The translations under genes and the position numbers were made by a program. Positions 22,748 to 25,502 of a stretch of DNA of 64,000 nucleotides are shown one piece after another. Source of the stretch: Candidatus Zixiibacteriota bacterium (GTDB taxonomy: Bacteria > Zixibacteria > MSB-5A5 > GN15 > FEB-12); contig JAOUBJ010000007.1 in NCBI GenBank assembly GCA_029860345.1, positions 62,001 through 126,000 of the forward strand, in the 5' to 3' direction. Each line of letters opens with the position of its first letter. Position 1 is the first letter of the stretch. The notes under the pieces were generated by a model. The model had not been told where the DNA came from, made no database searches, and was given only the letters and a program-made list of their open reading frames with translations.

Positions 22748-24085
22748 CTATCGGGTGTAGGGATTGTAGAAATCGTCGTTGGACAGAGGGATATCCTCGA
22801 TGTAGACCTTGGTGGTCGGATGACCAGCATACCAAATATCCCAGGCGGCACGGGTGTAGGGCGGGCCGGTTAGCATACGACCGGCATACTCTCCGGCGAT
22901 GCACCAAAGCACACATCCGCAGCCGGGCACAGCTGCGCCGACAGTGGCCGGATACCACATGCTTTCGGTTTCGTAGTCGAACAAGACAAACGTGTAATTG
23001 TACGTCCAACCGCTGGAGGCCAAAGTGAGAACCTGTCCGTCTATTTCTCGGTGGTACACGACCGCCAGGTTTTGCAGCGGTCAGTAAGTGGCGGCAATAT
23101 GCACCGAGTCGATCTGGTCATCCACCACCTCGTTGGAGATAATGGCCAACAGTGAATAGGCGCGGGTCTCACCGTTCAGTACCAGACCCAGAACCGGAAA
23201 GGTACTGCCGGGCGACGGATAGCCGTCATCGCCCGGCGAGAGAAACTCCGGGTTGATAACGGGCGGGAAATGATACGGTCCCAAACCAAAATTGAAACTG
23301 TCGGGGTCCATGCCATAGTAATGAACGCCGTATGAAATATCCCACGGCTTGAGCGTCTGATCGACGATTATCACGGTGTCGATGATGCCGGGCTCGGCCT
23401 GCGGACAGTCAGGCGGTGTCGGCCCCGAGGTGAACATGAATTCGACCAGGAAAACCAGATCACCGATGTCGATAGAGCCGTCACCGGTCAGATCGGTCTC
23501 GCTCAGACAACTGGGCGCCGGTCCGCCCGAGAACATGTAGTCGACGAGGTAGATAAGGTCGGCGATATCGACACCGCCGCTCGGATCATGATCCACGTTG
23601 CCTGCATAGGGACCCAGGCAGCAGAGCCATTCAATCACGAAGGCGTCGGCGTAGTCATCGGCCGAGACCCACCGGCCGTCCATATCACCACGGATTTGCA
23701 AATAATCGGTACCATCCAACGGCACCGGATGTCCACTCAACCAGTTGCTGTACGACCAGGGCTCACCATTTACCCAGACCCAGGTTCCTTCGATGACGAC
23801 ATCGGTTCCCCCGATCCAGGCTGAATCGGTTTGACTGAGGAGCGCATTCATGGCCAGTTGCTCGGAGTGATCGGTGATAACGGCCAGCCGGGCTCCCATG
23901 TTGAGGGCTGAGTCGCGCGCTTGTATCCAGGTCAACGGTTCATCGAGGCGGATCAATTCGAACGTGGTGTCGGCGTTGGACCGAACGGTCGGAGCCAGGA
24001 CAAGGAGCAAACAGCACCCGGCCACAACGGCGAGAAGTCTTTTAGGTGTCGACGGCTTTTGTAAACGGAGAATCCAGTTGGTCAT
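22748..24085 (-). CDS. C-type lectin/dockerin-like/DUF3179 protein with an in-frame UGA at the conserved Cys
   Basis: Read through one UGA (23083-23081, codon 335) this is a 445-aa secreted protein; the parts before (24085-23081) and after (to 22748) are in the same frame. Order: signal peptide (to about residue 37), C-type lectin-like domain (about 42-155, W-I-G-G-T-D and W-V-N-G-E-P-W), two dockerin-like repeats (about 160-230), DUF3179 (about 240-440). DUF3179 proteins carry a conserved T-Y-C-P-L-C motif; here it reads T-Y-(UGA)-P-L-Q, so the stop replaces the first Cys. Downstream conservation continues (Y-H-R-E-I-D-G, S-S-G-W-T-Y, E-T-E-S-M-W, G-H-P-T-T-K-V). It may be selenocysteine, or a recent nonsense mutation of a Cys codon; if terminated, it would be a pseudogene. 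Function of DUF3179 is unknown; extracytoplasmic location is clear. Confidence 0.75.
23081..23083 (-). other. In-frame UGA at conserved Cys position (possible selenocysteine codon)
   Basis: The only stop between the two halves of the DUF3179 gene. In the mRNA, a hairpin with arms GGCGGU and ACCACC (one C-A mismatch) and a CGUGU loop can form with the loop about 20 nt after the UGA. This distance, and a G within the first two loop bases, are in the range described for bacterial SECIS elements. A competing hairpin GACCGC/GCGGUC starts on the UGA itself. Recoding is not proven. Confidence 0.45.
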
Positions 24086-24314: not shown

Positions 24315-25502
24315 ATGAATCTCAATAGATTGCAAACCGTCGGTCTTTGGCTTGCCCCATGCGTTGTTATATGTCTGTTGATGGGTGTAAGCGCCAGTGG
24401 CCAGATACCCCAACTTTTGAACTACCAGGGCCGTCTTACCACCGCCGGGACAGCGATTGACACGGTCGTTCCGATACTGTTCACTATCTATAACGACAGC
24501 TTGGGCGCCAATCCACTCTGGAGTGAAACGCACCCTGCCGTCAATGTCGAAAAGGGGCTCTTTGCAGTCATGTTGGGTTCGGTGACCAGCCTTCCGGACG
24601 GGCTTTTCGGCGACAGCACTCGCTATCTGGGCATAAGGATCGGCGATGACCCGGAGAGTGTGCCGCTCTCCAGGTTTGCATCGGTAGCCTATGCTTTCAA
24701 AGCGGTCCATACCGACACAGCTTCCTACGCCCATGCCACCGAAGGCAGCGGCTGGACGGATGACGGCGCTGTGGTCAGGCTGACCGCCAGTGGCGACAAA
24801 GTAGGCATCGGTACTTCCAGCCCGTTTTACCGCGTACATATCACCGGGTCGGAATCGTCACCGCTTTTGAATGTTGAGAAGACCGGTTCCGGACGTGGTA
24901 TGCGTGTTTACACCACCAGTGCGTGCGCTATCTGGGTGGCCAACGGCGGCAACCATGGCCTGCGCGTCACTCATGCCAACGGTGACGGCGTGCATGTGAC
25001 ATCGGCTGGGGGTTACGCCGGCTGGTTTAACGGCAAAGGGTATTTCAGCGGCAATCTGGGTGTCGGCACTTTGACGCCAGGGGAGAAACTGGATGTCGTC
25101 GGCGGATCGATCCGCACCGACGGCCGGTTAATTTCTACGGTGGCTACCGGTACGCCGCCTTTGGATGTCCATAGTGAAACACAGGTAGCCAACCTGAACG
25201 CTGATATGCTGGATGGACACCACGCAGCCGATTTGGCCACCGCCGCTACGGAAACGGCAACAGTGGATAATTCAAGCGCGGTCAGTATTTCTTTTTCATC
25301 GGCAACTTTCACGACACCGCCGGATTTGTCTGCCACCGTCCTGGTGCTGTCCGGAACCTGCATCGGGTCGACAGCAAAAATCGTCAACCAGAGCGCTACC
25401 AGTGATGGTGCAACTTTGACCCTGCAGGGATTCAACGGCAGTGCATTCGTTGATTTGGCTGAATTCGACGAAGTTCAGGTTAGCTACACGGCCGTGCAGT
25501 AG
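24315..25502 (+). CDS. Secreted protein with phage tail-fibre-like repeats
   Basis: A 395-aa exported protein with a signal peptide (residues 1-30, ending A-S-G before Q-I-P). The N-terminal domain starts with L-L-N-Y-Q-G-R-L-T, typical of secreted beta-sandwich proteins of environmental bacteria. The middle carries tail-fibre-like motifs, V-G-I-G-T-S-S-P-F-Y-R-V-H-I and G-V-G-T-L-T-P-G-E-K-L-D-V, and a motif L-N-A-D-M-L-D-G-H-H-A, all usual in trimeric fibre stalks. No S74 chaperone domain follows; the C-terminus is a small beta domain. Strong AGGAGGA sits before the ATG. A trimeric cell-surface fibre is inference. It has its own promoter and no close operon partner. Confidence 0.7.
   Translation: MNLNRLQTVGLWLAPCVVICLLMGVSASGQIPQLLNYQGRLTTAGTAIDTVVPILFTIYNDSLGANPLWSETHPAVNVEKGLFAVMLGSVTSLPDGLFGDSTRYLGIRIGDDPESVPLSRFASVAYAFKAVHTDTASYAHATEGSGWTDDGAVVRLTASGDKVGIGTSSPFYRVHITGSESSPLLNVEKTGSGRGMRVYTTSACAIWVANGGNHGLRVTHANGDGVHVTSAGGYAGWFNGKGYFSGNLGVGTLTPGEKLDVVGGSIRTDGRLISTVATGTPPLDVHSETQVANLNADMLDGHHAADLATAATETATVDNSSAVSISFSSATFTTPPDLSATVLVLSGTCIGSTAKIVNQSATSDGATLTLQGFNGSAFVDLAEFDEVQVSYTAVQ

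What the first reader, a model, noticed from the sequence alone, without database searches (positions are those of the whole stretch)
22748..24085. UGA exactly at the conserved Cys of a DUF3179 protein: possible new selenoprotein
Seen: one in-frame UGA at codon 335 with about 110 well-conserved codons after it; the context T-Y-(stop)-P-L-Q matches the family motif T-Y-C-P-L-C at its first Cys. A hairpin with its loop about 20 nt after the UGA can be drawn. Known: selenocysteine usually replaces a Cys conserved in homologues. Against: the second Cys of the motif is Gln, and a single Cys-to-stop change would look the same. No selenocysteine genes are in the window.
Basis: partly seen in the sequence, partly recalled or inferred. 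Interest (0 to 1): 0.75.

Follow-up and report, generated by a model that had tools for sequence, protein, structure and literature searches.

The report
Secreted DUF3179 selenoprotein with shifted thiol
A gene in a Zixiibacteriota bacterium very probably reads its internal UGA as the rare amino acid selenocysteine; the protein family was already a listed selenoprotein, but this apparently exported branch has lost the usual partner cysteine beside the selenium and gained two others further along.

Summary
A minus-strand gene (24085..22748) has one in-frame UGA (23083..23081, codon 335) at the invariant Cys of DUF3179 (PF11376), followed by 110 further codons. It is very probably a real selenoprotein. 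The genome carries tRNA-Sec (anticodon UCA), selA, selB and a selD that itself contains an in-frame UGA. Four of its five DUF3179 genes have UGA at this codon. Across the phylum (Candidatus Zixiibacteriota) I collected 35 such genes. All 35 place a hairpin loop 20 nt after the UGA, with covarying pairs and an invariant GU in the loop. The hairpin exceeds what the protein sequence imposes (z = 10.6) and is absent from Cys-encoding homologues (z = 0.2). DUF3179 is already listed as a Sec family (UxxC/T), so the family is not new. What appears unreported is the branch: half-length DUF3179 behind dockerin-like repeats and usually a C-type-lectin domain, all seven members with UGA, the UxxC partner Cys replaced by Q/K/A/R, and a distal CxC gained that the other two branches lack. 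The window copy has the weakest hairpin of the seven (one C.A mismatch).

The parts
22748..24085 (-). whole selenoprotein gene, 445 residues with Sec335, TAG stop
   Evidence: PF11376 E 1.1e-27, PF00059 E 2.7e-7
23081..23083 (-). UGA read as selenocysteine, codon 335
   Evidence: same codon is UGA in 35 and Cys in 10 aligned homologues
23050..23066 (-). SECIS-like hairpin: helix columns 18-23/29-34 counted from the T of UGA; loop CGUGU at 23060..23056; C.A mismatch at columns 20/32 (23064 and 23052) in this copy
23975..24085 (-). N-terminal hydrophobic export signal (residues 1-37, read by eye)
   Evidence: sequence MTNWILRLQKPSTPKRLLAVVAGCCLLLVLAPTVRSN; no signal-peptide program was run
23621..23947 (-). 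C-type lectin-like domain (about residues 47-155)
   Evidence: PF00059 over its cut-off; phmmer to macrophage mannose receptor 1 at 2.9e-17
23405..23593 (-). two dockerin-like repeats (about residues 165-227)
   Evidence: PF00404 below cut-off here (15.3 bits) but over it in homologue L052 (25.0 bits)
22754..23269 (-). half-length DUF3179 domain (residues 273-444, profile 4-163 of 292)
22913..22921 (-). C-G-C motif, Cys389 and Cys391; candidate partner of Sec335
   Evidence: Cys389 in 7/7, Cys391 in 6/7 of this branch; 0/28 and 0/10 in the other two branches

Best explanation
The gene encodes an exported selenoprotein. SelB carrying Sec-tRNA(Sec) binds a bacterial SECIS hairpin whose loop begins 20 nt after the UGA, and selenocysteine is inserted at codon 335, the invariant Cys position of DUF3179, giving a 445-residue protein (lectin-like domain, dockerin-like repeats, half-length DUF3179). 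Shown by computation: the UGA at a conserved Cys/Sec codon, the covarying hairpin, the Sec machinery, and conservation after the UGA. Inferred: that insertion takes place, that the protein is exported, and that Sec335 works as a thiol-redox centre whose partner is not the usual UxxC cysteine but the branch-specific CxC (Cys389/Cys391). The confidence given is for the selenoprotein claim; the CxC step is about 0.4-0.5.
For: Sec machinery: tRNA-Sec 69.4 bits with anticodon UCA, selB 307 bits and selA 506 bits next to each other, and selD 378 bits with its own in-frame UGA after CAG. UGA is an ordinary stop elsewhere, ending 13 of the other 29 long window ORFs. Four of five DUF3179 genes in the genome have UGA at the same codon. 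All seven half-length members, in five genomes, have UGA at this codon. Hairpin across 35 genes: 99% of cells paired against 80% shuffled and at most 53% slid; 34 two-sided changes against 7.9; covariation 0.573 against 0.203. With synonymous codons randomised: 5.94 of 6 pairs against 4.27 +/- 0.16 for Sec genes (z 10.6); the Cys homologues 2.80 against 2.76 (z 0.2). Loop G and U invariant in 35 of 35. Spacing and loop fit the published bSECIS model. Identity before/after the UGA is 0.58/0.62 and 0.60/0.60 to the two paralogues, with third-position changes dominating after the UGA.
Against: The hairpin of this copy has a C.A mismatch and folds at only -5.4 kcal/mol in the 23-nt stretch (-9.1 over 48 nt), the weakest of the seven half-length members, and on its own does not beat the codon null (P 0.076). 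Insertion efficiency may therefore be low. The usual UxxC partner is missing. No reads, mass spectrometry or selenium data are available. Sec machinery is near-universal in the phylum (selA over cut-off in 116 of 132), so its presence is a necessary condition rather than discriminating evidence.
Confidence: 0.93

Rival explanations
1. Pseudogene or single Cys-to-stop mutation: the UGA ends a truncated 334-residue protein.
For: A one-base change would look the same; this copy has a mismatch in its hairpin.
Against: The same codon is UGA in 35 genes of many genera, third-position changes dominate after the UGA, and a hairpin covaries beyond codon constraint.
Confidence: 0.04
2. Sequencing or assembly error at the A of TGA.
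For: Raw reads were not available.
Against: Two paralogues of the same branch and one full-length paralogue in the genome, and 31 genes in other genomes, carry TGA there.
Confidence: 0.01
3. UGA is reassigned or suppressed generally (for example to Trp or Gly) in this organism.
For: UGA is apparently read through in several genes.
Against: UGA ends 13 of the other 29 long ORFs of the window, a window scan found no other convincing gene running across UGA, the other gene met is selD, a known Sec gene family, and the genome has tRNA-Sec with anticodon UCA.
Confidence: 0.01
4. Sec is inserted, but the CxC is a separate metal site or structural disulphide and not the partner of Sec335.
For: CxC lies 54 residues after Sec335 in sequence; no structure is available.
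Against: Its presence goes with the loss of the UxxC Cys: Cys389 7/7 with UxxC 0/7 here, against CxC 0/28 with UxxC 28/28 in the full-length Sec branch. With three clades this is one correlated change, so it is weak evidence.
Confidence: 0.45

Closest known systems
DUF3179 domain-containing selenoprotein (PF11376), listed in the selenoproteome reviews PMC9312934 and PMC13188914, which cite an earlier Olavius algarvensis symbiont survey
   Same: Sec at a Cys position of the PF11376 domain, UxxC/T motif region
   Different: Listed motif UxxC/T; this branch has UxxQ/K/A/R, about half of the DUF3179 profile, N-terminal lectin and dockerin-like parts, and a CxC found in neither of the other branches here
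Full-length Zixiibacteriota TWUPLC DUF3179 selenoproteins (for example L002 in the same genome)
   Same: UGA at the same codon and a hairpin at the same position with the same GU in the loop
   Different: Full 292-position domain, UxxC in 28/28, no CxC, no lectin or dockerin part in L002
Omp28-related selenoprotein (NCBIfam NF045500)
   Same: Also a selenoprotein family; its model ends in a dockerin-like tail that the window protein weakly resembles (4.5e-4)
   Different: Only the tail matches, far below the family cut-off of 200 bits; no match in the Sec domain

Membership tests
DUF3179 (PF11376) | Profile match over the curated cut-off | tested here: met
   97.7 bits against 27, residues 273-444, profile 4-163 of 292
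DUF3179 (PF11376) | Full-length domain | tested here: not met
   Only about the first half of the profile is covered, in all six half-length members scanned with Pfam
DUF3179 selenoprotein | UGA at the invariant Cys | tested here: met
   column Cys/Sec in 45 of 45
DUF3179 selenoprotein | UxxC/T motif as listed in the reviews | tested here: not met
   UxxQ in the window; Q x3, K x2, A, R in the branch
Bacterial selenoprotein | selA, selB, selC, selD in the genome | tested here: met
Bacterial selenoprotein | bSECIS: 16-37 nt from UGA to the loop, loop 3-9 nt with G in its first two positions, upper stem 4-16 bp, energy at most -7.5 kcal/mol (PMC13188914) | tested here: inconclusive
   Spacing 20, loop CGUGU with G second, 5 of 6 pairs with an internal mismatch; -5.4 kcal/mol for the hairpin alone, -9.1 for 48 nt. 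Of 35 homologous sites only the window copy breaks the pair at columns 20/32
Bacterial selenoprotein | Sec detected in the protein | not testable with these tools
   needs mass spectrometry or 75Se labelling

The most novel reading that the evidence does not exclude
A Zixiibacteriota branch of exported DUF3179 selenoproteins in which the partner thiol of selenocysteine has moved from the adjacent UxxC position to a distal CxC motif, attached to lectin-like and dockerin-like domains, i.e. a cell-surface or extracellular selenium redox protein of a new type.
Probability: 0.4. Interest if true: 0.55.

Novelty: new variant of a known kind. Interest (0 to 1): 0.42.

Why it matters
Standard annotation would cut this gene and its relatives at the UGA and lose the part of the domain that follows the active site. 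The branch gives a set of natural Sec proteins in which the UxxC partner Cys is gone and another Cys pair has appeared, which makes the question of how a Sec centre acquires a new resolving thiol open to test. It also extends selenoproteins to an apparently exported, lectin-bearing architecture in a phylum where selA is near-universal.

Tried and rejected
Sequence search of solved structures with the 45-row DUF3179 profile gave only chance-level globin hits. A scan of the window for other in-frame UGA genes gave no convincing second case. The 2007 paper cited by the reviews for DUF3179 is not in the library. The Omp28_seleno search in the genome returned only many dockerin-like tails, none over the cut-off. 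The 690-residue frame of homologue L051 runs across a masked stretch (X run) and is not evidence of a fusion. The alternative register of the window hairpin (4 pairs, 8-nt loop) is less stable, -3.8 against -5.4 kcal/mol. Co-occurrence of UGA-DUF3179 with selA was not usable as evidence because selA is nearly everywhere in the phylum.

Full report
Observation. The gene lies on the minus strand, from an ATG at 24085 to a TAG ending at 22748, with one in-frame UGA at 23083..23081, codon 335, and 110 codons after it. The read-through product matches PF11376 (DUF3179) across the UGA with E = 1.1e-27, and a C-type lectin domain with E = 2.7e-7; two dockerin-like repeats lie between them, below the Pfam cut-off here but over it in a homologue. 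The N-terminus looks like an export signal by eye.

Genome. The window belongs to a 4.76-Mb genome whose nearest named hits for this branch are Candidatus Zixiibacteriota. It holds tRNA-Sec with anticodon UCA, selB and selA next to each other and selD, which itself has an in-frame UGA after CAG near its start, the known active-site Cys/Sec position of SelD (the position is from general knowledge). UGA is otherwise a normal stop: it ends 13 of the other 29 long, non-overlapping ORFs of the window.

Homologues. Five DUF3179 genes are present; four have UGA at the same codon and one (L001) has TGC. In the family, 17 of 54 genomes have the domain; in the phylum sample, 32 of 132 match a profile of this branch. 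Seven genes belong to the half-length branch (three in this genome, one each in G008, G078, G087, G093) and each has UGA at this codon; the tool lists one TAA as well in the G087 match, at its far end. A scan of 84,980 species with short patterns, one of which reads Cys at this position, gave no close Cys version of the branch; the patterns are strict, so this is a weak negative. A tree of the 45 domain sequences puts Sec half-length, Sec full-length and Cys genes on three separate branches.

SECIS. The 35 UGA sites align without gaps. Counting from the T of UGA, columns 18-23 pair with 29-34 around a five-base loop whose second and third bases are G and U in all 35. 99% of cells are paired, with 34 changes on both sides against 7.9 in shuffles, and sliding the partner by one to three bases drops pairing to 19-53%. 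Because this stretch also encodes a conserved peptide, I randomised synonymous codons: Sec genes keep 5.94 of 6 pairs against 4.27 +/- 0.16 expected, z = 10.6; the seven half-length genes alone z = 6.0; the ten Cys genes are at expectation, z = 0.2. The synonymous pool is drawn from these same domains, so codon usage is roughly but not exactly matched genome by genome, and related sequences are not independent. The element fits the published spacing and loop rule. The window copy has one mismatch (C20.A32) next to a G-C pair at 21/31 that no other member has; its own P is 0.076 and its energy the weakest of the branch.

Constraint. Identity to the two paralogues is the same before and after the UGA, and nucleotide differences after the UGA are concentrated at third positions, for example 11, 10, 28 by codon position against L005. 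This is not a decaying tail.

What differs. In the full-length Sec branch the motif is UxxC in 28 of 28; the Cys branch has CxxT in 10 of 10; the half-length branch has neither (Q x3, K x2, A, R). Instead it has Cys389 in 7 of 7 and Cys391 in 6 of 7, absent from all 38 others. I infer that the partner of Sec has moved to this CxC. This rests on one correlated change between three clades, and a metal site or structural disulphide is not excluded. The alignment around the CxC is gapped, since the motif lies in an insertion.

Known status. DUF3179 is already in two catalogues of prokaryotic selenoproteins with the motif UxxC/T. No held paper found here joins DUF3179 with lectin or dockerin parts, or Zixibacteria with this family; most subscription papers are not held.

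Noticed in passing
L023 (G000:C24:6940-7866, outside the window): The genome's selD has an in-frame UGA directly after VSCAG, so SelD is itself probably a selenoprotein here.
   Followed up: partly
L002 (G000:C1:248443-249330, outside the window): A full-length DUF3179 gene with TWUPLC, one of 28 collected in the phylum, would also be split by standard annotation.
   Followed up: yes
G048:C64:9741-11075 (related genome): A selA match is listed with one TGA inside; not examined.
   Followed up: no
whole genome G000: 137 matches to the Omp28_seleno model, all to its dockerin-like C-terminal part, so dockerin-like repeats are very common in this genome.
   Followed up: no
window 24315-25502: A 395-residue ORF just upstream on the opposite strand has no Pfam match.
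   Followed up: no
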